Shown here piece after piece: positions 16,084-57,584 of a stretch of DNA of 64,000 nucleotides; within the stretch, counting starts at the first letter, position 1; each line of letters begins with the position of its first letter. The notes beneath the pieces are model-generated. The model saw only the letters and a list, made by a program, of their open reading frames with translations, had not been told where the DNA came from and did no database searches. A program made the position numbers and the translations under genes. The DNA is taken from contig CP136066.1 in assembly GCA_032622095.1 (NCBI GenBank), positions 170,634,664 through 170,698,663 of the forward strand, written 5' to 3'. Source of the DNA: Siphonodentalium dalli (taxonomy: Eukaryota; Mollusca; Scaphopoda; Gadilida; Siphonodentaliidae).

Positions 16084-16482
16084 TTAACCCTTTACCCAAC
16101 AGAAGGGCCCTGTGCCAATGCATTCTCTTATATATGCGAGTCGACCATAGGTCGCCTCGCATATATAAGAGAATGCATTGGCTTAACACATTAAAAATTA
16201 TAAAATTGTTAAAGAATGTAAGAAAAATGGTAAAAAGTGTTAAAACAAGATTTTTTTTAGGCCAATGCATTCTCTTATGTATGCGAGGCGACCTATGCTT
16301 GACTCGCATATATAAGAGAATGCATTGGCACAGGGCATAACTATAACCATCACAATGTGGTCAATGAGCCGGTTCCAATGATATCCATATTTGTATGGTT
16401 TTATTGAGACAGACCCAAGATATTTTAGGCTGTTGAAGCTTTATTTGGCCGGTTTTGGCCGGTTTGTTGGGTAAAGGGTTAA
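16084..16482 (+). mobile_element. TTAA-flanked nested-hairpin element, copy 1
   Basis: It is bounded by TTAA at both ends. The inverted ends are CCCTTTACCCAACA and TGTTGGGTAAAGGG, a TTAA target and CCC start typical of piggyBac-type elements. Inside are two hairpins of about 76 bp. Each has 26-bp arms starting CCAATGCATTCTCTTATATA and ending TGCGAG, round a TCGACCATAGGTCGCC loop. The second hairpin is the inverse of the first, so the pair is palindromic as well. The AT-rich spacer carries TTAACACATT...GTGTTAA. A longer right shoulder (TGATATCCATATTTGTATGG, then GGCCGGTTTTGGCCGG) precedes the right end. This copy has a few arm mutations in hairpin 2 (TATGTATGCG, ATGCTTGAC). No protein is coded, so it needs outside transposase. 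Confidence 0.88.
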
Positions 16483-17514
16483 ACACTAATGTTTTGCATT
16501 TTCACGTCCTCTCCCTATGCAGGCAATTTCAAATTTTAAACTGAAATGTCTATTTGTTCTTTTTCGTACCGATATTTCATTCAGATGTCTAAGATGTATA
16601 TAAAGACACCATGAAATCGTTAAGTAAGTTCGCATCACAATGTATTGTGCATCTGAGAAACCATTGTTGGCGTGTGGTTTCTAACCATTTGTTTTGTTAT
16701 ATGAACGAACACTTGATTTAAACTAAGACTTCCTTCGAAAATAGTTAATGGGAGGTTTGTAATTACGACTACTCCTTTAAATGAATTGTATCGTAACGGT
16801 CATCGCATGTCATAGCATGTGTTAAAATTCAAAGTAGGCCTTTAAACTTACCATGCTGACAAGCTTCAGAGAAGATAATCCGATCTGATTATATTTTAAA
16901 TCCCCAAATAAGTTACCATTAAATTGTAATGGACGAATATATGATGCACACATGACCTGGAGGCTGGAACTAAACAGAATGGTATCATCGTCATCACACT
17001 GATATGTAATAATATGATTCCTATTTTGAGACAAATATTTGCCCGTAGTTTACAGATAATTATTCCGTTTTGCAATATTCCATACAGTAATCAATCCGGT
17101 GAATTGTAATTTGCACGACACTGCTCCTGCAACTAGCCGTACAACAGATAATTATATCTTTCGGCAGTAATTTTACCAAACTGCTATCAATATCATGTGT
17201 GTTTGGCGCTATATACACCATTATGATCCTTATTGTGTCATGGGTATGGCAATATTCAAACATACATACGATTTAAGTATATTATATTATGTATTTATCA
17301 GACCAAGTTGCAGACAATCCGTTCAGTTCACTTAATAATCGTAAATTCAGAGGACGCACTTCACCTCCAGGATTTATAGATAGTAAATTTTAGAAGTATA
17401 GTATATTCACCAATTAGTCCGAGCGATTTGATATTCCGAACATGTCCTATTATTTAGACATCATAAATAGCATGTGAAAAATAATATAATTTAATGTAAA
17501 CAAATGAAAAACTC
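16483..17514. other. No gene seen
   Basis: AT-rich DNA with only short frames; nothing recognised. Confidence 0.5.
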
Positions 17515-17884
17515 TTGAGCAATTTCTGGTGTCGAATACACACCCTGAATGTTCAGTTGGCTAGGTGTCCTATGTTCTGCGTCAATATATATACAGCAAT
17601 GTTCTGTAAACTAAATCAGACTGCGGGTGCAAATGGTGATGTTGGTTTGTGCGGCAATTCACCCGGCTATCGAAATGAAAGCCAGAAATTCGTGGTCGAA
17701 CGAAATGCAGCGGACGATGGTTAAGTTGGAAGTGAAGATACTGCAGCAGGAGAAGGTGATGGTGTTCTGGCAGTTGTGGACCAAACTGACCACCGTGAGA
17801 TATATGCCGAAGACCAATGGAGCTTTCCACAGAGGCCACACCCACAGCGGTAGTACCGCCCACTGGTAAAAAGACTTTACCCAC
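17515..17884 (+). pseudogene. Relic of receptor-associated end-of-tail coding sequence, copy 1
   Basis: Reads D-V-G-L-C-G-N-S-P-G-Y-R-N-E-S-Q-K-F-V-V-E then A-A-D-D-G, a stop, and V-G-S-E-D-T-A-A-G-E-G. The same series is readable at 22083-22245 downstream of the intact receptor (D-V-G-L-C-G-N-S...V-V-E...D-D-G-F-V-G-S-D-T-T-A-S-E). Agreement at protein level across an in-frame stop suggests a once-coding sequence duplicated together with the receptor family. Whether it belonged to the receptor tail or to a neighbouring gene is not decided. Confidence 0.5.
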
Positions 17885-18551
17885 ATAAATATTGTCTGTT
17901 ACCCGAGATAGACTTCCGAAGTGAACACAACAGCACTCGCCCTTACGTTAACTAGCTGAAACAGACTCATACATATGATTCGTGCGATCTTTTTAAATAG
18001 TTTGATTAAAACAAATTATTTAAATTCAATTTTTACATTTTTTTTAGGAATTGAACTCTGATCTGCTGTAGAACAAATATTAGTAATTTTTGTTTTAATT
18101 TAAAAAACAAATTTAAATTTTTTAATTTGTTTTTATATTTATTTGGGGGCGGACAGGACTAACCGGACAGTGATTTCGAAGAGGGTGTCTGCATAGAAAG
18201 AAGTAATTATTTAAACTGAGAAAATCTATGATAATAATAAATATGGCAATATGGCGTAATAAATAATATTTAATGGGGGAAGATCACACATTTGAACTGA
18301 AACATTGGTTTTGATAAAAATTTGCTATGAAAATTATGAACATTTACATTTGATGGGATATTTTTGAGAACAATTCGTCAGTCGGTGATGATTCAAATGA
18401 TTTTTTCAACAATAGAGCGATGTCAATTGATTTGAATAAAGCATCGGGGCCTTATGCCACGAACACATTATTAACCCACCTTAAACTGATGAAAACAAAG
18501 GGTTATGATGCTGTAATTTGTAAAAATGCGAGTATTCAAGCTAAAAGTAAT
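17885..18551. other. No gene seen
   Basis: Very AT-rich, including runs of A and T at 17990-18145; no supported feature. Confidence 0.5.
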
Positions 18552-18557
18552 ATCTAA

Positions 18558-18871
18558 GTGCCACCGCAGACGCTGCGATTAAAATCGTAAGTGGGGATAA
18601 TCGCAGGTGGAGAAAAGTCGCTTGCCTGCGATGTATGCAGCTGCGATTTTATCCACGTGATCGATCGCACGATAGCATGTAAATAGTGAGAGCAGCGCGA
18701 CCATGGTCATGTGACAGTTACGATCGCGCGCTTTACCAAGGTCGCCACGATTTTCCTGATAAAATTCAAACATTGCTTGATCGCTACGATATGGCTGCGA
18801 TATTGTCGTGAGCATGCGCAGTGGATGTGCCAGCTGCGATTTTCCCCACTTACGATTTCAAACTGCGGTGG
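18558..18871. mobile_element. GC-rich MITE with about 50-bp terminal inverted repeats
   Basis: The left end GTGCCACCGCAG...AAATCGTAAGTGGGGA then TAATCGCAG is matched by the right end CAGCTGCGATTTTCCCCACT then TACGATTTCAAACTGCGGTGG. The flanks are ATCTAA at 18552-18557 and 18872-18877, a probable 6-bp target duplication. The centre is rich in GCGATCG/CGATCGC words, in contrast to the AT-rich surroundings. No protein is coded. Confidence 0.82.
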
Positions 18872-19087
18872 ATCTAAAATATATTTAAAATTATCTCGCC
18901 TCGGACTTCTTGACTGCATATTTTCGTTACTGCTCGATGATCTACTGTGTGCATACTGACAGGGGATGGTCTCTGGGGACCGTGATTTCCATGTTATTCA
19001 CATAGTGTCAACCTGTTAATGGAAACTTGTTAATATCAAACCGATTAAGGACGTGTGCGTTTCCGTCGTTACACAAAGGGGGACAGG

Positions 19088-19095
19088 TATATAAA
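19088..19095 (+). promoter_or_regulatory. Possible TATA box of the receptor gene
   Basis: TATATAAA lies about 540 bases upstream of the likely start codon. The stretch between has several out-of-frame ATGs. No transcript data are available, so this is a weak prediction. Confidence 0.25.
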
Positions 19096-19629
19096 CACAA
19101 CGGACATGTTTCTGCATTAGACTCAATTGGCCTGCTATTCTGTTGTATATTCCATCGATCTGGATTGCGCTATGTTCTGTTGAAGCAATGTGACATTTAG
19201 AGGTTCATTGAACCGTTCGATTCGGCGACCTGTAGGAACTTACTCCGCTTTGGATATTATTATCTCCAGAACAACAAAGCAAGCCTTCAAGATAGAAAGA
19301 GTTCGTACACAGCTGGACTGAAACACATGTTGAATTGAAAGATCGTTCAAGTTTGTGTGACTTGTATATGCAACATTTTGAGTTTTTATTGGACCATTAT
19401 ATTCTGGGACTTGCATCAACTTACATCGCTTACCTTTAAATCAACGACAGCCTTCAACATAGAACGATTTCGTACATACTAAATATGTTGATGTTGAATT
19501 TAAAAATCATTCATGTATGAATGTAAAACAAAACACGAAAAGTATAAATATGTATAGGGGTCATGCAGTGTTCAAAATGTGTTTCTGACAACAATTCATT
19601 TAAGGTATTTTTACAAGCGGATTCATGAA

Positions 19630-21575
19630 ATGGACCGTAATGCTTCTCAACACGTGTTATTCTGGACCTTGAATGGCTATGGACCCACAGCGACGGTACT
19701 TTTCATCGGCGCAATCTCATCCCTGATTGCACTTACGATTATATTCCTCAACTCAATCGTTCTTGACACACTCCGGACGAATAGACACGTGCTCCAGACA
19801 GCCGATATATTTATAGCTAGCATCGCATTGGCCGATCTCATTCATGGAGTAACATTGTTGTATCAAGTGACATATAGCATCGTTAACTTCCAAGATTTAA
19901 CGGAATGTAGGTTCCGGTACGGACTTATCCACACCACTGGAATAAATTCAGTCCTTAACCTCGTTTCATTGACCTTTGAACGCTACGTTAAGATCACACT
20001 GCCGTTCAAATACAACAACATTTTCCATAAGACATCAAACCTATGCCTGACCGCCGGAATATGGATCCTGTCTGGAGTTATTGGTCAGCTCCCGACGATG
20101 GGATGGAACGTGGATCCACCGAATGACGTCATATGGCCTTGCACATATCTAGGTGTCCATAGCAACGCGTATCTGACGCTGGTTGTCGTCGCGTTCCTGT
20201 TTACATCCTTCATCATGATCGTCGTTTATCTTCATATTTTCAAGGTCGTGTGGTCACACTCACGAGCAATGAAGACACAGCGTCACGTAGGCCGCAGTTC
20301 TAATTTCGACAGAAACACGTGGAGATTAACTAAAACAATCTGTTTCATAGCCGGGGTTTATTTCCTTACTTGGATTCCAACAGGTAAGGGGTGTCAGGTC
20401 CAGGAACCTATACGTCACTAATGTAATATCTCTTCAGACGTTCGGGTGGCCGCTATTTTGGAACTCATGCAGTGGATGAGGTCGATATTTCTTGCACTAG
20501 TTATTGTACGAGTGAAAGGTATTATAGGAGGTGCCAAGTGAATTCTTTTATATTAATGTTTTGACTCGTTTCACTCGAACAAACAAATGATTTATACAAT
20601 AACAACTACGAATTATAGAAGTTTTAAATCTAGAAATTCAGGTTAACGTCATTTGCTTCAAACTAATTGTACACATCTTATTTATATTGTTATAATATAG
20701 TCACAAAAAAGACCTGTAATCCTATTAACATGTATCGTACAATGAAACTAACTCGCCAATCACCCAGATATGCCCCATCGATTTAACCCACGTCGATCTT
20801 ATATTTTCCATTAACATCCTTATCTCCAAATAATTCTTCGTTGAACTTCAATAAAGTAATTTCGTTATATCGAAATAAGATATCGTTATAACGAAATAAT
20901 ATTTAGATATATCGAAATAAGATATCGTTATAACGATATCAGATTTCACTTGTTACACTTGTGTTATTTTTTTGTTTTGTCTGTCTTCTGATCATTTTTT
21001 CTGGCCAACCTTCAAATGAATGATAGGCTATTCCAAAGTATTATTGTATGACTGAATGGGAGAATCTGTTTAGTATAGAACGGATTAATTACTTCATTAC
21101 AGGAATAGCGTTGATGTTTGAAATAGATGGACGTCTTGAAAACATGACACCTCTACAAAGGGGCAACATCATATTCTATGTCTCCGGCATCGGCTACATC
21201 AACGGTATCGTGAATCCCATCATATATGCATTCAAAATACGAGTCGTCAAGATCAGATTCTATAAAATATTCTGCTGCAAGGATATAATCATAGCAGTTA
21301 ACGGATCGGCGATGAAGAACGGCAGTAATAGACCATCTGTGAGTTCAGTGACGACTTCAGAAATGAGCATTTCGCGTTCTAACAGCCAGTCTGGAATCAA
21401 TTGCAGTGCTAGTTCACCACCGTCAGACATATTGTTTACAGAAGCCAACGACGAGAAAACATCAATGAGTTCTAGGACGACTTCCGAAATGGGAATTCCG
21501 CGTTATAACAGTCAGCCTGGAATTAAATTTGATAACATTTCACCGTCGCCCGACAGTTTTTACAGAAAACAGTAA
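19630..21575 (+). CDS. Orphan class A G-protein-coupled receptor, two exons
   Basis: The CDS is join(19630..20383, 21103..21575), 408 residues. It starts at M-D-R-N-A-S, which has a glycosylation sequon; an in-frame ATG at 19579 would add 17 residues. The donor ACAG/GTAAGG and acceptor TTCATTACAG split a glycine codon. Visible landmarks are: TM1 F-L-N-S; TM2 A-L-A-D-L; the TM3 cysteine (T-E-C-R) paired with W-P-C-T in loop 2; E-R-Y in place of DRY; a TM4 Trp; M-G-W-N after TM4; TM5 without the usual proline; TM6 F-x-x-x-W-I-P; TM7 N-P-I-I-Y; and helix 8 ending F-C-C. M-G-W-N recalls the lipid/adenosine (MECA) group, but the ligand cannot be named. The tail holds about two and a half Ser-rich units (S-S-R-T-T-S-E-M...S-Q-S-G-I...S-P-P-S-D...F-T-E-A). 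A 2-base deletion near 21556 ends the frame early, after P-S-P-D-S-F-Y-R-K-Q. Confidence 0.85.
20384..21102 (+). other. Receptor intron (719 bp) with a palindromic minisatellite
   Basis: A phase-1 GT-AG intron between TM6 and TM7. At about 20855-20945 a unit of about 40 bp (ATATCGAAATAAGATATCGT then TATAACG) is repeated roughly twice and is itself palindromic (GATATCGTTATAACGATATC). The 3' part is similar to the intron of the orphan exon, except that this one has no MITE at GACTGAAT. Confidence 0.75.
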
Positions 21576-22000
21576 TTATAAGCCACCTGTGAGTTCAGAT
21601 ATGAACAGTTCGCGTTCAGAGAGTCAGCCTGGAATACATTGTGATACTATTTCACCATCGGACACAGTGTTCACAAAATCCAACGAAGAGAAAACATCTA
21701 TGAGTTCAAGGAGGACTTCCGAAATGGGAATGTCGCGTTCTGAGTTTCAACCTGCGACAAATTTCGATACTACATGTATTTCACCATGCATCGACATAGT
21801 TGTCACAGAGGGCAATGGAGAGAAGTCATCTATGAGATATACAATGTTTAGGACTTTCTCATTCTGGCTGTCAGCGTGGAATACATTATGATAGTATTGC
21901 CCCCTCGTCAGACATAGCTTTCGCAGAAGCCAGGGAAGTTACAAATGAAGTTCAAACAGTAAAGCAATCTTCAGAATCTACTGCTAATAATAGTTCATAG
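21558..22000 (+). pseudogene. Frameshifted continuation of the receptor tail repeats
   Basis: Just past the 2-base deletion the tail unit is readable one frame over: V-F-T-E-N-S-N-Y-K...S-S-R-S-E-S-Q-P-G-I-H...S-P-S-D-T-V-F-T-K, then another unit S-S-R-R-T-S-E-M-G-M-S-R-S-E-F-Q-P. After a second shift near 21850 a last segment reads A-P-S-S-D-I-A-F-A-E-A-R-E-V-T-N-E-V-Q-T-V-K-Q-S-S before a stop at about 21998. The ancestral tail was therefore about 140 residues longer. Splicing could in principle rescue it; no clear sites were seen. Confidence 0.7.
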
Positions 22001-22282
22001 GGTGGTGTCTCTGGTGTTCCGCGTCAGTCTATAGACAGCGATGTTCTGTAAAATAAAGGATACCTTATGTATAATACGGATGATGTTGGTTTGTGCGGCA
22101 ATTCACGCGTCTATCGTGATGGGGGCGAGAAACTCGTGGTCGAACCACCTGCAACTGAAACGGATGATGGTTTTGTTGGTAGTGACACTACTGCATCAGA
22201 AGTAGGTGCAATTGACAATTGTGCTGACAGTTGTATACCAATCTGACTGCCATGAGTTTTATGCCGAAATTTAGGCATGGCT
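22001..22282 (+). pseudogene. Relic of receptor-associated end-of-tail coding sequence, copy 2
   Basis: A frame at 22083-22245 reads D-V-G-L-C-G-N-S-R-V-Y-R-D-G-G-E-K-L-V-V-E and ends C-A-D-S-C-I-P-I before TGA. It matches 17635-17760 at protein level. It lies right after the shifted receptor tail, so it may be the old true end of that protein or a separate small gene. Confidence 0.45.
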
Positions 22283-24073: not shown

Positions 24074-24097
24074 TTAAAGGAGTCGATTAATTAGGCA

Positions 24098-24112
24098 CCC
24101 CCCCCCCCCCCC
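24098..24112. repeat. Poly-C run
   Basis: Fifteen consecutive C, just outside the 24-kb hairpin. Confidence 0.9.
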
Positions 24113-25639: not shown

Positions 25640-27600
25640 CCAAAACTCGACTTATAGTTTGATGGGGGACGGCGGGCGGCGGGCGGGCGGGCTGGCGGGC
25701 GGCCTGTTTTGCTTATAACTGAACCGTTTATTGACGGATTACGAAAAAATTTGGTGTGTGAGTACATATCCATGCACGTAAGCTGCAGACAACAAATCGG
25801 GTTCGTCCGCACATTTATTACAGAGTTATGGCCTTTTGCCATTTTTCACTGATTTTAGGCTCGTTAGCGCAACAACTTCAACAAACGTTATCTGATTCGA
25901 TTGAAATTTGGGATATATGTGTCTCCCAAGAATATCTCGGACGAGTTCGAAAACTGGCCTGGTCCGATAAAATTTGATAGGTTATGGCCCTTAATTAGTC
26001 ATTTTTCACGAATTTTCAGCTCGTTAGCGCGATAACTTCAACAAACGTTATCCGATTTGATTGAAATTTGGTATATAGGTGTCTCCCAAGATTATCTCGG
26101 ACGAGTTCGAAAACCGGCCTGGTCCGATAAAATTTGATAGAGTTATGGCCCTTAATTAGTCATTTTTCACGAATTTTCAGCTCGTTAGCGCGATAACTTC
26201 AACAAACGTTATCCAATTTGATTGAAATTTGGTATATAGGTGTTTCCCAAGAATATATCCGACGAATCGAAAACCGGCCTGGTCCGATAAAATTTGATAG
26301 AGTTATGGCCCTTAATTAGTCATTTTTCACGAATTTTCAGCTCGTTAGCGCGATAACTACAGCAAACGTTATCCGATTTGATTGAAATTTGGTATATAGG
26401 TGTCTCCCAAGAATATCTCGGTCGAGTTCGAAAACCGGCCAGGTCCGATAAAATTTGATAGAGTTATGGCCCTTAATTAGTCATTTTTTCAAAAAAATTC
26501 AGCTCGTTAGCGCGAGAATTTAACAAACATCATCCTATGATATATATATATAGGTGTCTCCCAAGAATACCTCGGACGAGTTAGAAAACCGGCCCGGTCC
26601 GATAACATTTGATAGAGTTATGGTCCTTAAGTAGTCATTTTGTACGAATTTTGAGCTCGCTAGCGCGATAACTTCAACAAACGTCATCCGATTCAACTAA
26701 AATTTGGTATATAAGTGTCTTCCAATAATATCCTGGACGAGTTTGAAAACCAATAAAATTTTATAGAGTTATGGCCCTTAATTAGTCATTTTTCACGAAT
26801 TTTCAGCTCGTTAGCGCGATAACTTCAACAAACGTTATCCAATTTGATTGAAATTTGGTATATAGGTGTCTCCCCAGAATATCTCGGTCGAGTTCGAAAA
26901 CCGGCCAGGTCCGATACAATTTGATAGAGTTATGGCCCTTAATTAGTAATTTTTCACGAATTTTCAGCTCGTTAGCGCGATAACTTCAACAAACGTTATC
27001 CGATTTGATTGAAATTTGGTATATAGGTGTCTCCCAAGAATATATCGGTCGAGTTCGAAAACCGGCCAGGTCCGATACAATTTGATAGAGTTATGGCCCT
27101 TAATTAGTCATTTTTTCACAAATTTTCAGCTCGTTAGCGCGAGAATTTAACAAACATCATCCTATGATATATATATATAGGTGTTTCCCAAGAATACCTC
27201 GGACGAGTTAGAAAACCGGCCCGGTCCGATAAGATTTGATAGAGTTATGGTCCTTAAGTAGTCATTTTGTACGAATGTTGAGCTCGTTAGCGCGATAACT
27301 TTAACAAACGTCATCCGATTCAACTAAAATTTGGTATATAAGTGTCTTCCAATAATATCCTGGACGAGTTTGAAAACCAATAAAATTTGATAGAGTTATG
27401 GCCCTTAATTAGTCATTTTTCGTGAATTTTTAGCTCGTTAGTGCGATAACTTCAACAAACGTCCTCCGATTTGTTTAAAATTTGGAATAGACGTACTTGC
27501 CAAGAATATTTCGGACGAGTTCGAAAACCAGCCTGGCCCGATAAAATTTGATAGAGTTATGGCCCTTAATTAATTTTTCGATTTTACCTATTAATTAGTC
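25640..27600. repeat. Satellite of about 161 bp, about 12 units, with a GC-rich head and higher-order period
   Basis: GTTATGG recurs at 25981, 26142, 26302, 26463, 26618, 26768, 26929, 27090, 27243, 27395 and 27555, mostly 160-161 bp apart with 150-155 bp variants. The unit reads GAGTTATGGCCCTTAATTAG, CAGCTCGTTAGCGCGATAAC, TTCAACAAACGTTATCCGAT, GGTATATAGGTGTCTCCCAA. A variant unit (GCGAGAATTTAACAAACATC, with TATATATATA) occurs at about 26510 and 27137, showing a block duplication of about 627 bp. The head at 25665-25705 is a run of GGCGGGCGG words. It matches a repeat style common in bivalve genomes. No gene. Confidence 0.9.
25668..25702 (+). other. G-rich tract able to form a G-quadruplex
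   Basis: GGCGGGCGGCGGGCGGGCGG followed by GCTGGCGGGCGG gives at least four GGG runs with loops of 1-4 bases on the plus strand, in an AT-rich region. Folding is an inference. Confidence 0.55.
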
Positions 27601-30185: not shown

Positions 30186-30390
30186 ACATATATATTAACC
30201 GTCAAGCCGACAGGCCACCAAAAACCATTCGGTAAGAAAAACGGAAGGCCAGAAGAATCATAAGGTCCTCAGACACCTAATGAAGAGGAAGCCGTCGCAT
30301 ATACTGAACAGAACTCTCTTCCCAGACGGAACGTCAATTATCCCTTTCATGACGGGAGCCGCGTTGGTGCAGCAATAAAAATCCTGCCCC

Positions 30391-30545
30391 AGTGCATTCT
30401 CTTATATATGCAAGTCTCACATCGAGAGCCTCGCACATCTAAGAGCATGCAATGGCTTACAAGGTCAATCTAAGTATTGTTAGGCAAAATTATTCTCTTA
30501 TATATGCGAGGCTCCCTATGAGACTAGCATATATAAGATAATGGG
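30391..30545. repeat. Old relic of the nested-hairpin element core
   Basis: CAGTGCATTCTCTTATATAT, then GCCTCGCACATCTAAGAGCA, and a second arm pair at about 30491-30538. The order is the same as in the intact copies, but there are many substitutions and no outer ends. Stray CCTTCGGAATAGCGGACC follows immediately. Confidence 0.75.
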
Positions 30546-30736
30546 GACCTTCGGAATAGCGGACCTTGGGAATAACGGACTGTACTCGAATCACACGACG
30601 AAGGCATGCTTGCACTGTTCCGTTCTACATCCGTTTTCCAATTTCTAGATAAAGATGTTCTTATTCTAGCACCTAACGTAACTATGTTGAATCAATAGAT
30701 ACCGTGCTGAAATCTTTAATTATATGCATGCTGTAG

Positions 30737-31136
30737 TTAACCCTTTACCCAACAGAAGGGCCCTGTGCCAATGCATTCTCTTATATATGCGAGTCGACCA
30801 TAGGTCGCCTCGCATATATAAGAGAATGCATTGGCTTAACACATTACAAATTATAAAATTGTTAAAGAATGTAAGAAAAAATGGTAAAAAGTGTTAAAAA
30901 AAGATGTTTTTTAGGCCAATGCATTCTCTTATATATGCGAGGCGACCTATGGTCGACTCGCATATATAAGAGAATGCATTGGCACAGGGCATAACTGTAA
31001 CTATCACAATGTGGTCAAGGAGCCGGTTCCAATGATATCCATATTTGTATGGTTCTATTGAGACAGACCCAAGATATTTTAGGCTGTTGAAGCTTTATTT
31101 GGCCGGTTTTGGCCGGTTTGTTGGGTAAAGGGTTAA
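30737..31136 (+). mobile_element. TTAA-flanked nested-hairpin element, copy 2
   Basis: Full-length, same orientation as copy 1, with TTAA at 30737 and 31133. The hairpin arms are perfect in both hairpins, in contrast to copy 1. The right shoulder reads ATAACTGTAACTATCACAAT then the GGCCGGTTTTGGCCGG block. Confidence 0.9.
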
Positions 31137-31578
31137 TCGAAAATCATGGTACGCAACTGAAGACTTCTAGTCTCCATGTACACATATCATACATATTAAT
31201 TCTCAAGGTTTCCGGTGACTCAAGGGATGAGACTCAATCTGTTCAATATAAGTTTCATAAGAATTTCAAATTATATTGTAATGCAAATAAAACCTCACAA
31301 CTTGAATGGTCGTTCTAAGTGAAGCGATTTGTTGACTAAAGTGATAGGAAACTGAAATATACTCATACAACCAAAATCGACATTTCATGCATGCCATCTC
31401 TCTTAAAGTGTATACTTCCCATACGTAACATACTCTTTCAGATCGATATTATGATCAGAAGACATATTTAGTCACAGTGAACCATAACATACAGTCTGTC
31501 TGTCTATCTGTTTCTCAAATTAAAGAACATTGACAATTGCGATATTGTCGGTCTCAATTGTGACACAGTGATTTTTTT
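31137..31578. other. No gene seen
   Basis: Short frames only. Confidence 0.4.
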
Positions 31579-31950
31579 TACCCTGTGCCAATGCATTCTC
31601 TTATATATGCGAGTCGACCATAGGTCGCCTCGCATATATAAGAGAATGCATTGGCCTAACAATTTTTTATCATTTTTTTAAAATAAATGTTTCTTACAAT
31701 TTTTAGGAAATAAAATAAAAAACATCCATTACCCTGCAGGGAGCCCCACACATATATAGAAGCATATAGAAGAGTGTCGTCTGCTCATGTTTGTCTGGGG
31801 CTCTGTATGGGTGAAATTATAAAATTGTTAAAGAATACAAGAAAAAATTATTAAATTTGTAAAAAATTGTTAGGCCAATGCATTCTCTTATATATGCGAG
31901 GCGACCTATGGTCAACTCGCATATATAAGAGAATGCATTGGCACAGGGTA
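31579..31950. mobile_element. Core-only form of the nested-hairpin element
   Basis: Starts TACCCTGTGCCAATGCATTC and ends GAATGCATTGGCACAGGGTA; the symmetry continues into flanking T8/A8. Both hairpins are present with perfect arms. The outer CCCTTTACCCAACA ends and the GGCCGG shoulder are absent. The spacer differs and includes an extra inverted piece (GGGAGCCCCACAC against GTCTGGGGCTC). This form suggests that the hairpin core can exist, and perhaps move, without the TTAA shell. Confidence 0.8.
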
Positions 31951-32615
31951 AAAAAAACCAGACATGTATGTCTTAGCCGATTCTACTTATGTGGTGATAT
32001 GTGGGTTTATTGGAGACACTGTCAAAAATCGTTACAGACAGACACACACTTGGCTTTTATATAGTACGAGTAACGATGCTATGCATTTAAATTGCTATTT
32101 TGTAAACACTATTTCCTGGCAGTTTTACTCGAAATGTTGTATAATGGGTCACAGACGTGGCAAGATGGCGTCTCTTGTGGCGGCTGTTCAATTTAGAATT
32201 AACAAAAGAAACCCCGTGAATCAGACCCATATGTTCAACCCGACAGCCCACTGATTTTTCAGTTGATGACCATTTCAATCCAACAATTCGACCAAATGAA
32301 CGAAAATATTCAACTTTTGATCTAAAATCAACAAATTTCACACTAAATACTAGAATGAAGATCAATCAATAAGAAAAAGTTTAATCTGCCAACTGATATT
32401 GTGTCAGGCAAAGGGGTGTGGGTCTGTTGATTTTTTTTAAAGACACATTAGGAAGTGGTGTGTGGGTATGTGTAGATGGGGCGAGGCAGACATATTTACC
32501 ACGATATTATTGGGAAGAACCATCTAGATGGAAATCTACAAACTATTAGCTACCAGAAACCCCGAACTTAAAAAACGTCTAGGTATTTTAATTAAAATAG
32601 GACTGAAAAGGATCG
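31951..32615. other. No gene seen
   Basis: A plus-strand frame at 31964-32254 runs out of the element and is not convincing. Confidence 0.4.
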
Positions 32616-33422: not shown

Positions 33423-33820
33423 TTAACCCTTTACCCAACAAAACGGCCAAAACCGGCCAAATAAAGCTTCAACAGCCTAAAATATCTTCGGTCTGTCTCA
33501 ATAGAACCATACAAATATGGATATCATTGGAAACGGCTCCTTGACCACATTGTGATAGTTACAGTTATGCCCTGTGCCAATGCATTCTCTTATATATGCG
33601 AGTCGACCATAGGTCGCCTCGCATATATAAGAGAATGCATTGGCCTAAAAAAAATCTTTTTTTAACACTTTTTACCATTTTTTCTTACATTCTTTAACAA
33701 TTTTATAATTTTTAATGTGTTAAGCCAATGCATTCTCTTATATATGCGAGGCGACCTATGGTCGACTCGAATATAAGAGAATGCATTGGCACAGGGCCGT
33801 TCTGTTGGGTAAAGGATTAA
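33423..33820 (-). mobile_element. TTAA-flanked nested-hairpin element, copy 3
   Basis: In reverse orientation relative to copies 1 and 2 (GGCCGG shoulder on the left). TTAA at 33423 and 33817; the right end reads TGTTGGGTAAAGGA, one change from consensus. One arm of the second hairpin has lost AT-rich bases (CTCGAATATAAGAG for CTCGCATATATAAGAG). Confidence 0.88.
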
Positions 33821-35113: not shown

Positions 35114-35514
35114 TTAACCCTTTAACCAACAGAACGGCCCTGTGCCAATGCATTCTCTTATATATGCGAGTCGACCATAGGTCGCCTCGCATATATAAGA
35201 GAATGCATTGGCTTAACACATTAAAAATTATAAAATTGTTAAAGAATGTAAGAAAAAATGGTAAAAAGTGTTAAAAAAAAGATTTTTTTTAGGCCAATGC
35301 ATTCTCTTATATATGCGAGGCGACCTATGGTCGACTCGCATATATAAGAGAATGCATTGGCACAGGGCATAACTGTAACTATCACAATGTGGTCAAGGAG
35401 CCGGTTCCAATGATATCCATATTTGTATGGTTCTATTGAGACAGACCGAAGATATTTTAGGCTGTTGAAGCTTTATTTGGCCGGTTTTGGCCGGTTTGTT
35501 GGGTAAAGGGGCAA
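35114..35514 (+). mobile_element. TTAA-flanked nested-hairpin element, copy 4
   Basis: The left TTAA at 35114 is intact and the inner end reads CCCTTTAACCAACA (one change). The right end TGTTGGGTAAAGGG is followed by GCAA instead of TTAA, so one target copy has mutated. Both hairpins are intact. It lies between the receptor tail relic and its 3' flank. Confidence 0.88.
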
Positions 35515-39410: not shown

Positions 39411-39412
39411 TA

Positions 39413-42148: not shown

Positions 42149-42152
42149 TTAA

Positions 42153-42798: not shown

Positions 42799-42802
42799 TT
42801 AA

Positions 42803-49803: not shown

Positions 49804-49910
49804 GAGACACGGGGATTTGTCGCCGCTCTCGACCTGGAATGTCACCCTCGGGCCTGGCGACCCTCGGGTGACATTCCAGGTCTCGAGCGGGCGACAAATC
49901 CCCGTGTCTC
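49804..49910. repeat. GC-rich hairpin in the 1.1-kb repeat, copy 2
   Basis: The same structure as at 48697. The loop differs (GGCCTGGCGACC for GGCCTGGTGGCC) and the arm mismatch CCCCC/GGGG is absent here. Confidence 0.9.
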
Positions 49911-49936
49911 ACTCAATCGCGGGCGATAACTGTATA

Positions 49937-50560
49937 TTATTTTAATGTATGGTGTGAACATGTACAATAGCGCTAGTTGAGCTATCTCCCACGAAAACAT
50001 CGGATAGTGGCCAAAGAATGTGGCCGACCAAGTCTCGGTCCGATAAAACGGCCATGAGACCTGGTCCGGAACGCGGCAATGATACCGGACAGAGTCTTGT
50101 TCGACCAATGGTTTTCGCCGGTCTCCGATGGTTTCAGGGAAGATATCTCCGCTGTCGCAGACCCAACACAGTTGATACATATATAATCATGTGGGGACTT
50201 GTTATCGCAATACAAAAATTCTACTATTTGACTTTATTTTGTCTCTGTTATTCGATTTCTTACCAGAGTTTGGAGAAATTATCAATTTGAGGAGTATAGG
50301 AAAATTGTCTTATATATTGTGCCAGTGTGTGTCAGGGACCTGTGGCCTCCATTACACGAAGAGTAGATACCACGCAGAACAATAAAAATGCATACAACAA
50401 TGTGCAACACTGAACATAACAAGAAAATATAAACATAATTACACTATTATCATTGTATGGCGGAGCACATGCGTGCACCATACACACTCCACTATATATG
50501 TACACTACTGTATACACACGTGTACACATGCACGGGCATGCAGAAATATACGATAATAGC
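49937..50560. other. No gene seen
   Basis: Overlapping short frames on both strands at 49980-50290, none with a domain. Confidence 0.4.
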
Positions 50561-50666
50561 AGTGTGTTTTGAGATGTGTGTTATCTCTTTGAGTTAAAAG
50601 TATGATCGGCAAAGCGAAAAATCATACTTCTAACGAGTTGAGATAACACACATCTCAAAACACACT
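50561..50666. repeat. 106-bp hairpin
   Basis: AGTGTGTTTTGAGATGTGTG, then TTATCTC, pairs with GAGATAACACACATCTCAAA, then ACACACT. The arms are 27 bp perfect, then weaker (AAAAGTATGAT with ATCATACTTCT). Loop about 15 bases. Confidence 0.9.
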
Positions 50667-51671
50667 ATTTTATTGTTGTACATGTAATTATATTATGCCG
50701 ACCGACATCACTTTTGGCCAAATTTATGTCAGTTTTGAGAAAAAAACATTTCATTTCAAATACTTTTTTTTTGGCGGAGTTATGGCCCTTTTGCCATATC
50801 AGTTTTCCTCTAGTGGTCGACCGTTTCTAATCGTATTGCAGGGAAGTTCATGGGTGACTAACTTCCCTCGTTAATACCCATCCTAATAATTAACAAAATA
50901 ACGCAAATATCTGAATGTCATTTGAGATTTTGATTTGTTTCTATTCCCAGCGAATGGCGCATCGTAACGTTAATTTGTTTTACACTTTCACGTAACATTG
51001 AAATTCGTCTGTATATTGCATTTGTGTTTGTTTGCAAGAATAAGTAAATAATAAGCAACATAGTAAACTAAAATAGTGTCACGAAAAGGGAAATTTTGTA
51101 AATTGCTTAAATATTCATTAATGGCTTTTTCGGGGATATTGATACCAAAACTCAATTTCACACGTACTTCCATTGCTATACCGGTTGTACTTAGCTTTTG
51201 AAATCCATGATTACAGAGCAGAAAACCGTTCCAATTTATTTTGAGTTACTGGAAATGAATGGGCGCTGCCAGCAATGATTCGATGTATTCGTACGAACCA
51301 GCCTTGGGTCAGAAGCAAGATTATTTATCTCAAGTTTAAAACGGACATGGTTCTTTTCAATGCCCAAAATTACATAATTAGGTAAGTGGTATCCAAAAAT
51401 ATACCTACACGGAATATTATTCGTCTATATAGTGCTGAAAATACGCCTTTTTTTCTTGCAGTTTTCGATAAATTTGAGGTCGTTTCGTTTGTGTGGGTTT
51501 TTTTTTGTCAGCGGCCATGGAAACATTGCAACTGCTGACCATAGGAAGAATATGTAGAGCGATCGTTGCTCTGAAACGTTTATGGTGTATACTATATACT
51601 TTTGATGATAAAAACGAACAGAAAGCAATTAATGTATGCATTTTTAATTACATGCAGTTCCATGTTAAGAT
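50667..51671. other. No gene seen
   Basis: The GGAGTTATGGCCCTTTTGCC motif at about 50776 links this to the satellite family at 25.8 kb; otherwise nothing. Confidence 0.4.
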
Positions 51672-51760
51672 AATTATAATAATAATAATGATGGAGCTTA
51701 TATAGCGCCTATCCCTGCGAGGGCCCTATAAGCGCTTCACATTATTACCCCAGCTGTTGA
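51672..51760 (+). repeat. Fragment of a dispersed element with TATATAGCGCC...TAAGCGC ends
   Basis: TTATATAGCGCCTATCCCTG then CGAGGGCCCTATAAGCGCTT is a pattern often seen at ends of dispersed repeats in marine invertebrates. Only a fragment is present, abutting the retrotransposon. Confidence 0.4.
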
Positions 51761-51763
51761 GGA

Positions 51764-53251
51764 ATGCTCTTGCTTACACTTACCCAACAACCAGTTCCCT
51801 ATTTCTCGTTTAGGTACGACGATGGGAAAATCCTTGCAGTTATAAAAGCATTGTATAATAACCTGAAACTCTGTATTCGCACGAAAACGCACGAATCAAG
51901 CTTCATCAACAGTAGTGTGGGCCTAAAACAGGGAGACAACTTATCACCTCTGCTATACGCCCTATACGTCAACGATATCGAAAGCTCACTGAAAAAATCA
52001 GGTTATAATGGTATAGATATATCAGATTTCGACAGCGAGTTTTACATAAAGCTCTTTATCCTGATATATGCGGACGATACTGTCCTACTGGCACATTCAG
52101 CCGGCGATCTCCATTATGCCCTTCACAAATTCTCTAACTACTGTAAGCAGTGGAAACTAGATATCAGCGTAACAAAAACTAAAGTACTAATATTTGGAAG
52201 AAACTGCAAGAAAAAACATAATAATATTTTTAAAATCGGCAACAATAACATTGAAACAGTGAAAGATTATACATATTTAGGAACTACCTTCCATAGAAAT
52301 GGCTCCTTCTCTCTTGATAGAAACATGCGCTGCGAAAGAGCTAAAAAAGCGATGTACGCATTACTTAATAAGAAGAGATCCAATAGCTTAACTGTAGAGA
52401 GCACACTCGAAGTTTACGAAAAATCAATTGTCCCGATTCTAACATACGGAGCAGAGATTTGGTCATTCGAAAATCAATCCTGCTTCCAGAAAATAGAACT
52501 ATGGTTTCTAAAATTTTTGCTTAATCTGAAAAAATCTACACCTTCAGCATTCGTGTATGGGGAACTGGGAATATTCCCCATCACTATGAAAATCAAATTA
52601 AGAAATTTAACGTACTGGGGAAAACTTATACAAATGAACTTCAATAGGCTACCATTTATACTGTATTATATATTACTCACTTATTACAACTCATCTAACG
52701 TTAACAACCCATGGATTGCAAATGTGCATAAACTGTTAAATGAACTTGGAATGGGGGGTATATGGATCAACCACACATTATCTAGTCTCGACAGATTTAA
52801 GAAGTCGGTCAAGTGTAGGCTGGAAGACCAATTCATTCAAGAATGGAGAGGTACAATGTGTAATTCAAATAAGTATGCCTTTTACAGAATTATAAAACAC
52901 GACTTCACCAAAGAGAAATTCCTCTCTTTCGTGAAAAACGACACCGTCCAAATACTTCTGAAATTTCGTACCCGCAACCACCACTTACCAATCGAATCTG
53001 GTTCATGGATTAACTCAGATTATTCCGATAGACTATGTACTCTATGCGGTACAAATATAGGGGACGAATTCCACGTAATATTGCAATGCCCGTGTTTAAA
53101 AGACTTGCGAGTCAAATACATACACAAATATTATTATTGTCGACCAAATACCATCAAATTAAGTGAACTTTTTAACTGTAAACGACATAAAACCTTGAAA
53201 AACCTATCTCTTTTCATTAGACGGGTCCTGATTTTATTCAAAAACTCCTGA
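51764..53251 (+). CDS. Non-LTR retrotransposon reverse transcriptase, 5'-truncated
   Basis: A 495-residue open frame. Homology appears to begin near R-Y-D-D-G-K-I-L-A-V-I-K-A-L-Y; the first about 17 residues come from flanking DNA. Reverse transcriptase motifs in order are G-L-K-Q-G-D-N-L-S-P-L-L-Y-A-L-Y-V-N-D-I (finger/palm), Y-A-D-D-T-V-L-L-A (catalytic), a K-T-K-V-L-I-F-G segment and Y-L-G-T-T-F (thumb approach). Further on are I-V-P-I-L-T-Y-G-A-E-I-W, and near the end a cysteine/histidine motif C-T-L-C-G-T...H-V-I-L-Q-C-P. The endonuclease and first RT motifs are missing. There are no stops in the remaining frame, so insertion is fairly recent. It is CR1/L2/jockey-like in organisation; the clade is not decided. 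Confidence 0.85.
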   Translation: MLLLTLTQQPVPYFSFRYDDGKILAVIKALYNNLKLCIRTKTHESSFINSSVGLKQGDNLSPLLYALYVNDIESSLKKSGYNGIDISDFDSEFYIKLFILIYADDTVLLAHSAGDLHYALHKFSNYCKQWKLDISVTKTKVLIFGRNCKKKHNNIFKIGNNNIETVKDYTYLGTTFHRNGSFSLDRNMRCERAKKAMYALLNKKRSNSLTVESTLEVYEKSIVPILTYGAEIWSFENQSCFQKIELWFLKFLLNLKKSTPSAFVYGELGIFPITMKIKLRNLTYWGKLIQMNFNRLPFILYYILLTYYNSSNVNNPWIANVHKLLNELGMGGIWINHTLSSLDRFKKSVKCRLEDQFIQEWRGTMCNSNKYAFYRIIKHDFTKEKFLSFVKNDTVQILLKFRTRNHHLPIESGSWINSDYSDRLCTLCGTNIGDEFHVILQCPCLKDLRVKYIHKYYYCRPNTIKLSELFNCKRHKTLKNLSLFIRRVLILFKNS

Positions 53252-53459
53252 GGCATACTATATGCGTAATACATTAAAATCCGACATTTGCACAACCATG
53301 GGCTGTTCTCAATCACCTGTATTATTATAATATGTGTAATTTTCAACGCGCACCACTTTTGTAACTTGCACAGAAATTATATGCACTGTATTCCACCGAG
53401 CTCTATTGTGTCATATTTGACGATTTGAGTGAATAAATAATTGAATTGAATTGAATTGA
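53252..53459 (+). repeat. 3' end of the retrotransposon with (TTGAA)n tail
   Basis: A 3' untranslated stretch ending GAATAAATAATTGAATTGAA then TTGAATTGA. The simple-repeat tail instead of poly-A marks the 3' terminus. It does not match the ATG-type tail of the ORF1 element at 38.1 kb, so these are different families. Confidence 0.75.
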
Positions 53460-53549
53460 CGAAGCGAGCGCAGTACAAGTGACCTTGCCCAAGGGTCACA
53501 ACATGGCGCGAGATTTGCGAACTCACGTCGGTGTATTAACACCACGTCT
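53460..53549. other. Flank after the retrotransposon
   Basis: Short flank leading to the direct repeat; nothing recognised. Confidence 0.3.
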
Positions 53550-53895
53550 CGGAGGCTGTAACAGATTACAAACACTGATTTATAGATGTCTGTAAAAACA
53601 CTAGTTTGGAGAAAAGATATACACCAGTGAAGGGTACGATAGGGGCTTGAACCAATATCTGTCGCACAGTACCTGACGGGAAACGTTTCATAATGGTGAG
53701 CTCAATATTTAACAAAAGCGGGTTGTTTTGGAAATTAATCTGTCGTAAGCTAGGAATATGCGGTCGATAGCGTTGGCTTCTTTCGAATGTGTTTTGTTTA
53801 TGTATCACCCACACACTTTATGGAGAGAGAAAGCACTTGTCATACACGCGGATAAGTAACTAATTTACGGGTCAATAACACTTTATGAGCACTCT
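53550..53895. repeat. Direct repeat of about 345 bp, copy 1
   Basis: GGAGGCTGTAACAGATTACA to CACTTTATGAGCACTCTGGT matches 55143-55488, in the same orientation about 1.6 kb apart. The copies differ by scattered changes. There are no TG...CA ends or primer site, so LTRs are unlikely. Confidence 0.85.
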
Positions 53896-55142
53896 GGTCG
53901 CATAAACCCACTTTAACTACTGGGCTACCACTTCCACTGATAACGCAAACATACCTTTTGCGGACATTCCGTTTCCGATACGAGAATTCTGATGAATACG
54001 GATCGGAACATCGTGTTCGAAGTTGTATTTTTGATGACTTCAATGCGTCATTCGAGAACATATAATGCTCGTAGAAATGTAGTTCAGGTATTTATCGACA
54101 TATCTCGATACCGGAAAGTATTTAAAAGCGAATATTAGTAGGTGAAATTTGAGCGCAACACGTACAGTTTTAGATATTGAATCGATTCTGTCGAAGTCAA
54201 CTATAAATTACTCACATATAAATCTTTAGCAATTAGAAGAAAATATTCAAACCTATAATAACATGAGGGGAATATAAGTAATAGTATATAATGGTGTTAT
54301 TATAACTAATAGCTTATCGGTGTCGAAGACTCTCATTGGTAAACAAGAGTAATTTGTTGGCCGGATTAAGAAGCAACATGGGTGCCTTATTGGGAATTCT
54401 AGAGGTTCTCGAAACGATAGTTTATGCACAAAATCGAAGGGTGTAATGTCGAGTGTGGCTCAAACACATTTACCACGGTCGCAAAGATGTCACTGCAACA
54501 AGGAAAATTGTTCTTCGATTTTGAATATCATATTACATTCTTCATACTTCTTCGTTGATAGTTGTTATATATCTGGTGCCAGTTATCAACTCCCTTTCTG
54601 TTTGTACTTGGAACATAATTAATGAAAGTTCGATTATTCCTATGTTGTTACGCCTATTGTAAGGATGCAGGTACAGAGACTACAAATATTGAAGCTGTGG
54701 CGGTCGATAGCGTTTTAGTTAAACATAGTTTATTGCCATTATAGGACATATAAGACAATATGGATTAGAGCACTAGAGTGTTGGACAATAAGGCTTGTCT
54801 AGCTGCGACATATAACACAAGTTCAATATGCAGCAATAAATGACAATGGTTAACAATAGCATATGCTTATGGGGAAATACAGTTAATGTAAATGCACCTG
54901 CGAAAAGAACAAAGAGATGATTTATCTCTTCCCAGAAGTGCTAGCTTCATCAACATAAGTATTTCTATAAATATTTTGACTACTTTTGTGCAATGTTATA
55001 CCAGAAGGAAACAGGCGTAATCGTCTGATATATAAATGGATCTAATTAAAGACATGTTTAGAAGTCCAGAATATTCGAAAAATTTATAGCAAATTTTTGT
55101 CCCGAGTTCAGGTATATTTTGTTCTGGAGAACAAAAACGTTT
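53896..55142. other. No gene seen between the direct repeats
   Basis: AT-rich sequence without a recognisable protein. Confidence 0.5.
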
Positions 55143-55490
55143 TGGAGGCTGTAACAGAGCACAAACACTGATTTATAGAAGTCTGAAAAAAAAAATAGTT
55201 TGGGGGAAAGATATACACCAGCGAAAGTAATGGGAGGGGATGAAACCAATACCTGTCGCACAGTACCTGGCGGGCAACGTTTCACAATGGTGAGCTCAAT
55301 ATTTAACAAAAGCGGTTTGTTTTGGAAATGAATCTGTCGACAGCTAGGAATATGCGGTCGATAGCGTTGGCTTCTTTCGTGTTTTGTTATGTATCACCCA
55401 CACACGTTATGGAGAGAGAAAACACTAGTCATACACGCGAATAAGTAACTAGTTTACGGGTCAACAACACTTTATGAGCTCTCTGGTCGT
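55143..55490. repeat. Direct repeat of about 345 bp, copy 2
   Basis: See copy 1. It includes CATTTCGTGTTTTG-type small deletions relative to copy 1 (TTCGTGTTTTGTTATG for TTCGAATGTGTTTTGTTTATG). Confidence 0.85.
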
Positions 55491-56226
55491 ATTCGATCGA
55501 TGAAAGGAAGAAATGCGACAAGATATGAGCGCCACTCATATGGGAGTCTATACGTTCACTACATGTACATGCTAGCAAATTGGGAATGTTAACTTTTGAT
55601 CTCTCTCTCGCATCAGCTTAGTGCTGAATATACATCCAAATTCCATCCTGGGTAACGCGTTTCAACCTGTTACAATGCATTCAAGTTCACACTGAGATAA
55701 TGTCGATGCCGGGACGTGGTTCTGTATGTCAATGCAACCAGCTTCCAAGGTGAACTGTCAATGCCATACTAGTACATGTCTGTGCTAATGACCTACGATT
55801 CAGCACATTTACGCAGATTCGAAATCCGATATCGAATCGGGTGTCTGATATCGATATCGAATCTCGAATCGAATCGATAACGGTGTGGCATGGCATATAG
55901 GTCACAACATTCAGTAGCGAGCTTATTCATATTTTGAACTAAAATACAATAATTACGTGGATATAATTGTACAGAATTTAATTATAACTATGTAATTATT
56001 TAAATTGATTCTGAGTATATGATTGTGCGCAAACTAACTATTCGGTTTGCGGTTAATCGTTATGTTAATCATCTCAAGTACCATTGTTCGCACAATATGA
56101 CCCTTATGTTAGTCAGTTCGCGGCCATACAACAATGGGATCGGGCCATATCGTGACAAAATCAATTAGCAGTTGGTGAACAACGTGACCATGTTCATACT
56201 AACCCGATAACACCTCGATAACACAA
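55491..56226. other. No gene seen; GATTCGA/TCGAATC-rich stretch at 55810-55885
   Basis: ATCCGATATCGAATCGG, GATATCGATATCGAATC and TCGAATCGAATCG give overlapping small palindromes. Related words (TCGATTCAGTATCGACACCG, AATCAAATCGAATC) occur at 56870-57000, beyond the next hairpin element. Confidence 0.5.
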
Positions 56227-56627
56227 TTAACCCTTTACCCAACAAACCGGCCAAAACCGGCCAAATAAAGCTTCAACAGCCTAAAATATCTTCGGTCTGT
56301 CTCAATAAAACCATACAAATATGGATATCATTGGAACCGGCTCCTTGACCACATTGTGATGGTTACAGTTATACCCTGTGCCAATGCATTCTCTTATATA
56401 TGCGAGTCGACCATAGGTCGCCTCGCATATATAAGAGAATGCATTGGCCTAAAAATAAGTCTTTTTTTAACACTTTTAACCATTTTTTCTTACATTCTTT
56501 AACAATTTTATAAATTTTAATGTGTTAAGCCAATGCATTCTCTTATATATGCGAGGCGACCTATGGTCGACTCGCATATATAAGAGAATGCATTGGCACA
56601 GGGCCCTTCTGTTGGGTAAAGGGTTAT
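56227..56627 (-). mobile_element. TTAA-flanked nested-hairpin element, copy 5
   Basis: Reverse orientation. TTAA at 56227; the right flank reads TTAT, a one-base change. Both hairpins have perfect arms; the spacer has small changes (TTAACCATTTTTTC). Confidence 0.88.
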
Positions 56628-57035
56628 AATAATAAATTACCAATTAGTCATACAACTGTTAGGCCACTTGGTGTAGCTGGTCTCTTATGTGAGCTTTCTG
56701 TCTTTACCTAAGTGACCCATCCTTTACACATTTAACATCGGATGTGTTCCGCAGATTATCCCACATGTTTATCATTCCGACATGTAATTAACCACCACCT
56801 AGCGCAAAATCCGCAACAATAGTTCAATGTTGGAGACATGTTGGATAATTCAAATTATTTGAGGGGTTTCGATTCAGTATCGACACCGAATCAGACCCGT
56901 GACTTTTAGCTTTGTGAAGACATGAAGGGTGTAGCATAAGTGGGAGCCGTCTTTAGCGCCATTCATCGTTTTTATAGAATCAAATCGAATCTCCAAGATT
57001 CGCATGGCGCTTTTGTTTTCCTAAATAAATTGTGT
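56628..57035. other. No gene seen
   Basis: AT-rich, with the CGATTC/GAATCG words mentioned above. Confidence 0.4.
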
Positions 57036-57584
57036 TTAACCCTTTACCCAACAAACCGGCCAAAACCGGCCAAATAAAGCTTCAACAGCCTAAAATATCT
57101 TCGGTCTGTCTCCATAGAACCATACAAATATGGATATCATTGGAATCGGCCCATTGACCAAATTGTGATGGTTATAGTTATGCCCTGTGCCAATGCATTC
57201 TCTTATATATGCGAGTCGACCATAGGTCGCCTCGCATATATAAGAGAATGCATTGGCCTAAAAAAACACTTTTTTAAACACTTTTTACCATTTTTTCTTA
57301 CATTCTTTAACAATTTTATAATTTTTAATGTGTTAAGCCAATGCATTCTCTTATATATGCGAGGCGACCATAGGTCGCCTCGCATATATAAGAGAATGCA
57401 TTGGCCTAAAAAAAAAAAAAAAAATAACACTTTTTAACATTTTTTCTTACATTCTTTAACAATTTTATAATTTTTAATGTGTTAAGCCAATGCATTCTCT
57501 TATATATGCGAGGCGACCTATGGTCGACTCGCATATATAAGAGAATACATTGGCACAGGGCCGTTCTGTTGGGTAAAGGGTTAA
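57036..57584 (-). mobile_element. TTAA-flanked nested-hairpin element, copy 6, with three hairpins
   Basis: TTAA at 57036 and 57581, perfect outer ends, reverse orientation. Three hairpins instead of two (at about 57188-57257, 57338-57405 and 57487-57555), so the element is about 150 bp longer. The middle hairpin has the fully symmetric centre GAGGCGACCATAGGTCGCCTC, a hybrid of the two normal loops, and is followed by a run of about 17 A. Confidence 0.9.

What the first reader, a model, noticed from the sequence alone, without database searches (positions are those of the whole stretch)
16084..57584. A TTAA-targeted family with hairpins nested in hairpins, six full copies in one window
Elements at 16084, 30737, 33423, 35114, 56227 and 57036 share TTAA flanks, CCCTTTACCCAACA ends and two 76-bp hairpins that are themselves mutually inverted, plus a TTAACAC/GTGTTAA spacer pair. 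The DNA can fold at three levels. Hairpin arms are kept perfect in most copies while spacers vary, which suggests either very recent spread or selection or gene conversion acting on the arms. A transcript would form two long perfect stems, candidates for small-RNA precursors.
Basis: partly seen in the sequence, partly recalled or inferred. Interest (0 to 1): 0.78.

Follow-up and report, generated by a model that had tools for sequence, protein, structure and literature searches.

The report
Hairpin cassette shared by jumping-DNA families
The six copies belong to a very large family of short, gene-less jumping DNA, and their striking double hairpin is a cassette that also sits inside several otherwise unrelated jumping-DNA families of the same genome.

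Summary
In detail: six elements (five of ~400 bp, one of 549 bp) with CCCTTTACCCAACA ends; 10 of 12 flanks are TTAA. They are non-autonomous piggyBac-type MITEs with 91,612 exact 18-nt ends in a 2.23-Gb genome, and TTAA empty sites exist in related repeats. 'Arms kept perfect by selection or conversion' is not supported for individual copies: arms mutate about as fast as other parts, mutated pairs show no excess compensation, and a built-in T·C mismatch stands in all 100 loops listed. The arms look perfect because the burst is young. The predicted fold is one ~80-bp stem, not two hairpins.

The surprise: the module CCCTGTG–hairpin–spacer–hairpin–CACAGGG sits in at least four MITE families with unrelated outer ends. 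Three are TTAA-type; one has TGTGACCC ends and 2-bp target duplications. Consensus hairpins of three families are identical (69/69), with no net divergence. Exact arms number 270,224. Coral CMITEs (Wang 2010) are a precedent for a shared core under different piggyBac ends. Nested hairpins, this scale and sharing across two end types look like a new variant. How the cassette moves is unresolved; template switching in gap repair is my best guess.

The parts
16084..16482 (+). F1 copy 1, 399 bp; hairpins 16114-16182 and 16261-16329
30737..31136 (+). F1 copy 2, 400 bp; hairpins 30767-30835 and 30915-30983
   Evidence: folded
33423..33820 (-). F1 copy 3, 398 bp; hairpins 33576-33644 and 33724-33790 (2 bp lost in one arm)
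35114..35514 (+). F1 copy 4, 401 bp; hairpins 35144-35212 and 35293-35361; right flank GCAA
56227..56627 (-). F1 copy 5, 401 bp; hairpins 56380-56448 and 56529-56597; right flank TTAT
57036..57584 (-). F1 copy 6, 549 bp, three hairpins: 57189-57257, 57337-57405, 57486-57554
30338..30543 (-). decayed F3 (TTAACCCTTTCATGAC..) element with the older hairpin variant; its far end gives way to a 16-bp tandem repeat at 30545-30580
31581..31948 (.). hairpin module without piggyBac ends, in a T8A..TA8 context like the core of family F4; hairpins 31587-31655 and 31874-31942

Best explanation
The finding (family F1) is a non-autonomous piggyBac-superfamily MITE moved in trans by a transposase that recognises its TTAA-flanked CCCTTTACCCAACA ends (inferred from ends and target; the transposase was not found). 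Its nested hairpins are not rebuilt or guarded in each copy. They come from a module, CCCTGTG-hairpin-AT-rich spacer-hairpin-CACAGGG, that at least four MITE families with unrelated outer ends carry (shown; F2 carries a one-hairpin version in the copies read). F1 and F4 then amplified from founders that already had the module (inferred: module-free versions are very rare). After insertion copies decay without arm-to-arm correction, so arms look perfect because the burst is young (shown). The most likely capture step is template switching during gap repair after transposon excision, with the palindromes acting as stall and switch points (inferred, not tested).
For: Ends and target: 45,784+45,828 exact TTAACCCTTTACCCAACA in 2.23 Gb, reversed-pattern control 0. 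TTAA on both sides in 35 of 39 elements outside the window, duplicates included, and 4 of 6 inside. Empty sites: of 11 alignments printed for 9 chosen pairs, 6 hold a clean single TTAA, covering 4 insertions. Module sharing: same hairpins under F2 (TTAACCCTTTGAGTGCCAGG), F3 (TTAACCCTTYCATGACTGGAGC) and F4 (TGTGACCCGCC..) ends. Outer ends share only the terminal 9-10 nt TTAACCCTT(T), and F4 shares no more than 7-nt matches. 44,286 exact module ends with a non-G before them; the first 100 fall mostly in F2, F3 and T-run/F4 contexts. Consensus hairpin identical in F1, F2 and F4, between-family divergence equal to the mean of the within-family values. Module-free F1: 2 places, both module remnants. 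Module-free F4 centre of at most 12 nt: 6 places against 12,755 exact F4 arms. No correction in copies.
Against: Capture by template switching is inferred only. Between the F3 and the F1/F2/F4 lineages the hairpin changed in a paired way in both hairpins, so arm-copying or a pairing constraint may act rarely on founder copies. F1 hairpin sites carry no shared subfamily variants (0 of 138). F3 hairpin arms differ from consensus by 7.0% against 10.1% for outer arms, a hint of slower change, though the loci were picked by an exact loop. TA/TA at the module edges in F4 and in two of three solo modules would also fit transposition of the module itself.
Confidence: 0.72

Rival explanations
1. The module is itself an independent transposon (ends CCCTGTGCC../..GGCACAGGG, TA target) that inserted into several MITEs, which then carried it along.
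For: Sharp identical edges in several contexts; TA on both sides in F4, TA before it in F2. Modules without outer MITE ends exist, with TA on both sides in two of the three whose both edges were printed (window 31581-31948, L093; not L101).
Against: No target duplication at the module edges in F1 (GG before; CATAAC, in some copies TATAAC, after) or in F3 (AAAA before, ATC after). The solo copies keep a T-run like F4 instead of random TA sites.
Confidence: 0.25
2. Hairpin arms are actively kept perfect in every copy by palindrome-templated repair, gene conversion or selection for a folded RNA.
For: 37 of 59 indel-free F1 hairpins equal the consensus; paired changes between old and young hairpin variants in both hairpins. 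No shared subfamily variant among 138 hairpin sites against 6 of 79 spacer and 9 of 135 right-arm sites. F3 arms 7.0% against 10.1% in outer arms.
Against: Singleton rate in F1 arms 0.71% against 0.84% in the right arm; 1 double change among 37 mutated pairs, not complementary. F3: 19 doubles against 15.2 expected, and 8 of the 12 complementary ones sit at one CpG pair. T·C mismatch kept in 100 of 100 listed loops.
Confidence: 0.1
3. The families share the module because they are one old family whose ends diverged, not because the module moved.
For: F1, F2 and F3 all begin TTAACCCTT(T).
Against: Outer arms show no similarity beyond the first 9-10 nt while the hairpin is identical in F1, F2 and F4. 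F4 has unrelated ends and no TTAA duplication. Lengths outside the module differ (about 24 and 147 nt in F1, about 42 and 45 in F3).
Confidence: 0.05

Closest known systems
CMITE families of Acropora corals (Wang et al. 2010, PMC2872659; abstract, Results and Discussion read)
   Same: TTAA-flanked piggyBac-type MITE families with different ends sharing an internal region more conserved than the ends; tandem forms; one family tied to a piggyBac element with the same ends.
   Different: CMITEs are ~100 bp with a 75-bp core, about 1,600 copies in A. millepora, all TTAA-type, and no nested hairpins are described in the sections read. Here the core is a double hairpin plus spacer, exact arms number 270,224, and a non-TTAA family carries it too.
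piggyBac-superfamily MITEs in general
   Same: TTAA target, CCCTTT terminal motif, short, no credible ORF, high copy number.
   Different: Nested hairpin cassette not derived from the ends and shared with other families.
Foldback / Galileo-type elements (recalled; only a search listing for Galileo seen)
   Same: Large inverted repeats; exchange of parts between elements.
   Different: Here the terminal repeats are only ~18-26 bp; the long inverted repeats are internal.

Membership tests
piggyBac-superfamily MITE | TTAA target duplication | tested here: met
   Both sides TTAA in 35 of 39 and 4 of 6; single-TTAA empty sites in related repeats (6 of 11 printed alignments)
piggyBac-superfamily MITE | terminal inverted repeats with CC[C/T]T motif (motif as in PMC2872659) | tested here: met
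   CCCTTTACCCAACA at both ends
piggyBac-superfamily MITE | short and without transposase | tested here: met
   Lengths 233-549 bp among 44 elements (search limited to under ~720 bp); longest ATG ORF 89 aa overlapping copy 6 and 57 aa overlapping copy 2 (other copies not tested)
piggyBac-superfamily MITE | autonomous piggyBac element with the same ends | tested here: inconclusive
   128 PF13843 match rows; 22 loci read: no exact CCCTTTACCCAACA, single 2-mismatch hits in L015 and L020 and a 3-mismatch hit in L051, none paired; the rest not opened
CMITE-like families (shared core, different ends) | several families with unrelated ends share one internal region | tested here: met
   F1, F2, F3, F4
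CMITE-like families (shared core, different ends) | core homologous to the coral CMITE core | not testable with these tools
   The coral core sequence is in a figure, which is not held
small-RNA precursor (hairpin miRNA/siRNA locus) | small RNAs from the arms | not testable with these tools
   No reads available; no Rfam match at gathering threshold in the window
F4 as piggyBac/TTAA element | TTAA duplication | tested here: not met
   Four distinct copies with both ends have 2-bp duplications TA, TT, TA, TT (L092, L094, L096, L097; read off the flanks printed). One further copy (L030/L100, one end seen) has TTAA beside its end

The most novel reading that the evidence does not exclude
The double hairpin is a selfish passenger: a sequence with no transposon ends of its own that spreads by repeatedly getting itself copied into new non-autonomous transposons of different superfamilies (TTAA piggyBac-type and a TGTGACCC-ended type). 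It thereby exploits several transposases at once, possibly because its palindromes attract template switching or help amplification.
Probability: 0.35. Interest if true: 0.75.

Novelty: new variant of a known kind. Interest (0 to 1): 0.52.

Why it matters
How MITEs get their internal sequences, and why a few families explode in number, are open questions. A cassette identical under unrelated ends, in one chromosome-scale genome with over 10^5 exact arms, makes both testable: junctions, empty sites and founders can be read directly. It also shows that perfect hairpins in repeats need not mean selection or conversion.

Tried and rejected
Gene conversion or selection on arms in individual copies: tested on 33 F1 and 37 F3 copies, no support. 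Hairpins as deletion hot spots: in 35 copies, 10 of 20 deletions of 12 bp or more touch a hairpin and 18 of 40 breakpoints lie in one, P = 0.19 against random placement, so not claimed. A known RNA family: none in the window at gathering threshold. The 2.4-kb element at C1:6269628-6272033 as an autonomous partner: it is an F1 copy with a ~2-kb insertion in its spacer (read by eye). Autonomous partner among the 22 piggyBac loci opened: none. Weak lead: three loci (L009, L016, L021) start TTAACACGTTGAGTGCCGG, like F2. Host identity: mollusc haemocyanin domain PF14830 gave nothing, and nothing rang in the controls, so uninformative. Papers: searches. The end and arm sequences themselves are in no held paper. 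Only PMC2872659 was opened; other papers were seen as listings.

Rows dropped: one search looked at 40 F3 loci; L056 lacked the loop, L084 and L089 were dropped as duplicates of L083 and L086, leaving 37. Of 44 F1 elements 8 with matching flanks were set aside as duplicates; copy 6 and two outside 330-480 bp were also left out of the alignment, leaving 33. L098 was left out of F4 as a duplicate of L097. Not removed there: L108/L109 in F2, and L096/L099 and L030/L100 in F4, share flanks and are likely duplicates. One search took only hairpins without indels and with at most 8 changes. Most F2 and F4 loci were found by an exact 25-nt module end, so one arm of each is preselected to be intact. 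The module-free F4 test allows a centre of at most 12 nt and exact 9-mers, so longer or mutated empty centres would be missed.
Full report
OBSERVATION. Copies 1, 2 and 4 run one way, copies 3, 5 and 6 the other. Layout: 18-nt end with TTAA, 12 nt, hairpin 1 (69 bp), AT-rich spacer, hairpin 2 (69 bp, mutually inverted with hairpin 1), CACAGGG, and about 147 nt to the other end. Copy 6 has a third hairpin. Its middle hairpin is a hybrid of a hairpin 2 and a hairpin 1 and is therefore fully paired (sequence). Folded alone, copy 2 makes one ~80-bp stem of hairpin 1 with hairpin 2 (RNA -218.3 kcal/mol, z -23.3; DNA -134.1 kcal/mol, z -25.1).

SCALE. The window lies in a 2.23-Gb genome of nine contigs. 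The exact 18-mer TTAACCCTTTACCCAACA occurs 91,612 times, reversed control 0, so about 46,000 copies if both ends are intact. Of 39 further elements read, 35 have TTAA on both sides; duplicates are included. Of 44 elements under ~720 bp, window copies included, 8 were set aside as segmental or tandem duplicates. Flanks joined with one TTAA were compared with all loci held and 11 alignments for 9 chosen pairs were printed. Six hold a clean single TTAA where the element would be (L048 at 3393-3209, 3172-3352 and 4267-4160; L030 at 5933-5762; L036 at 2050-2307; L094 at 160-10), covering 4 insertions. Two (L030 at 969-1150 and 1191-1006) hold TTTAA. Three do not fit (L047 AATA, L032 TTAT, window 27695 TATA). 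So insertion at TTAA is real.

ARMS. In 33 copies singleton changes are 29 in 4,102 arm bases (0.71%), 36 in 4,302 right-arm bases (0.84%), 31 in 2,482 spacer bases (1.25%) and 11 in 1,186 end bases (0.93%). Of 37 mutated hairpin pairs one has both sides changed, and it is not complementary. In the older family F3 (37 copies) arms differ from consensus by 7.0% (259 of 3,691), the spacer by 6.5% (59 of 912), outer arms by 10.1% (321 of 3,194). Double changes are 19 against 15.2 expected; 12 are complementary, of which 8 sit at one CpG pair. The T·C mismatch next to the loop is kept in all of the first 100 of 127,660 loops matched; those 100 include tandem duplicates. So I see no correction or selection for pairing in individual copies; perfection reflects youth. 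Against this: hairpin sites carry no subfamily variants shared by 3 or more copies (0 of 138, against 15 of 214 in spacer plus right arm), F3 arms change less than F3 outer arms, and the old and young hairpin variants differ by paired changes, alike in both hairpins (positions 29/39 and 30/38 in both, 4/64 in one, plus one mismatch turned into a pair). Rare rewriting of founder copies, or constraint on them, is therefore not excluded.

THE SHARED CASSETTE. Hairpins also occur outside F1. F2: TTAACCCTTTGAGTGCCAGG..CATATA, then one hairpin and spacer in the copies read (14,969 exact ends). F3: TTAACCCTTYCATGACTGGAGC.., older hairpin variant, short spacer, some with extra hairpin units (10,119 exact old loops). 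One F3 copy, L037, carries the young hairpins and a long repetitive spacer. F4: TGTGACCCGCCATATCAAATCCAGTCGTAAGTCGGGATTTTTTTTA on both sides of the complete module (12,755 exact matches to a 26-nt piece of it), with 2-bp target duplications TA, TT, TA, TT in four distinct copies (read from flanks). Outer arms share only the first 9-10 nt among the TTAA families, and none with F4 beyond 7-nt matches. Consensus hairpins of F1 (59 hairpins), F2 (8) and F4 (20) are identical over 69 nt. Between-family divergence (F1-F2 2.95%, F1-F4 2.13%, F2-F4 3.44%) equals the mean of the within-family values (F1 1.66%, F2 4.24%, F4 2.58%), i.e. no net divergence; a few likely duplicate loci remain in the F2 and F4 sets. 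The exact 27-nt arm occurs 270,224 times. Of the first 100 exact module ends not preceded by G, 52 are F2, 16 F3, 10 exact F4 context, 12 other T-runs, 6 F1 variants, 4 other, judged by the 10 nt before the module; the list includes tandem duplicates.

EMPTY FAMILIES. Module-free F1 (CAACAGAASGG joined within 9 nt to ATAACTGTAAC) exists at 2 places, both with module remnants. A module-free F4 centre of at most 12 nt exists at 6 places, one of them made of T and A only. So F1 and F4 appear to have amplified with the module in place. F1 shows no target duplication at the module edges; F4 shows TA/TA, as do two of three solo modules.

MECHANISM. Shown: TTAA insertion, MITE-like size without a credible transposase ORF, one cassette in families of two end types, no arm-to-arm correction in copies. 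Inferred: a piggyBac transposase acts in trans; new families arise when ends of a transposon are rejoined around the cassette, most likely by template switching in gap repair. Unknown: whether the cassette helps transposition. A weak lead for F2: piggyBac loci L009, L016 and L021 begin TTAACACGTTGAGTGCCGG.

COMPARISON. Coral CMITEs (PMC2872659; abstract, Results and Discussion read) already show piggyBac-type MITE families with different ends and a shared core whose origin its authors could not explain. What I did not find in the listings searched is a core of nested hairpins, or one shared with a non-TTAA family. The library is partial and most subscription papers are missing.

Noticed in passing
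L092, L093, L096, L101, window 31337-32195 (inside the F4 spacer); also L102, L103: A second palindromic module (GGGAGCCCCACACA...TGTCTGGGGCTC) sits inside the F4 spacer and next to or apart from the hairpin module elsewhere, suggesting more than one shared cassette.
   Followed up: no
window 3282, 4635, 5988 and 40536, 41786: TTAACCC words recur at 1,353-bp and 1,250-bp spacing, pointing to tandem duplications in the window.
   Followed up: no
window 25822-27572 and 10949-11668: Long tandem arrays: 161-bp unit x11 and 31-bp unit x24.
   Followed up: no
G000 C1:735542-926285: F1 and F2 copies recur every ~14.5 kb, then every ~11.2 kb: large tandem duplications carrying the elements.
   Followed up: partly
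L037:5708-6588: F3 copy with the young hairpin variant and a long spacer made of ~30-bp repeats, a possible intermediate between F3 and the young modules.
   Followed up: partly
L093, L101, window 31581-31948: Modules flanked by T-runs but without the F4 outer ends; TA on both sides in two of the three.
   Followed up: partly
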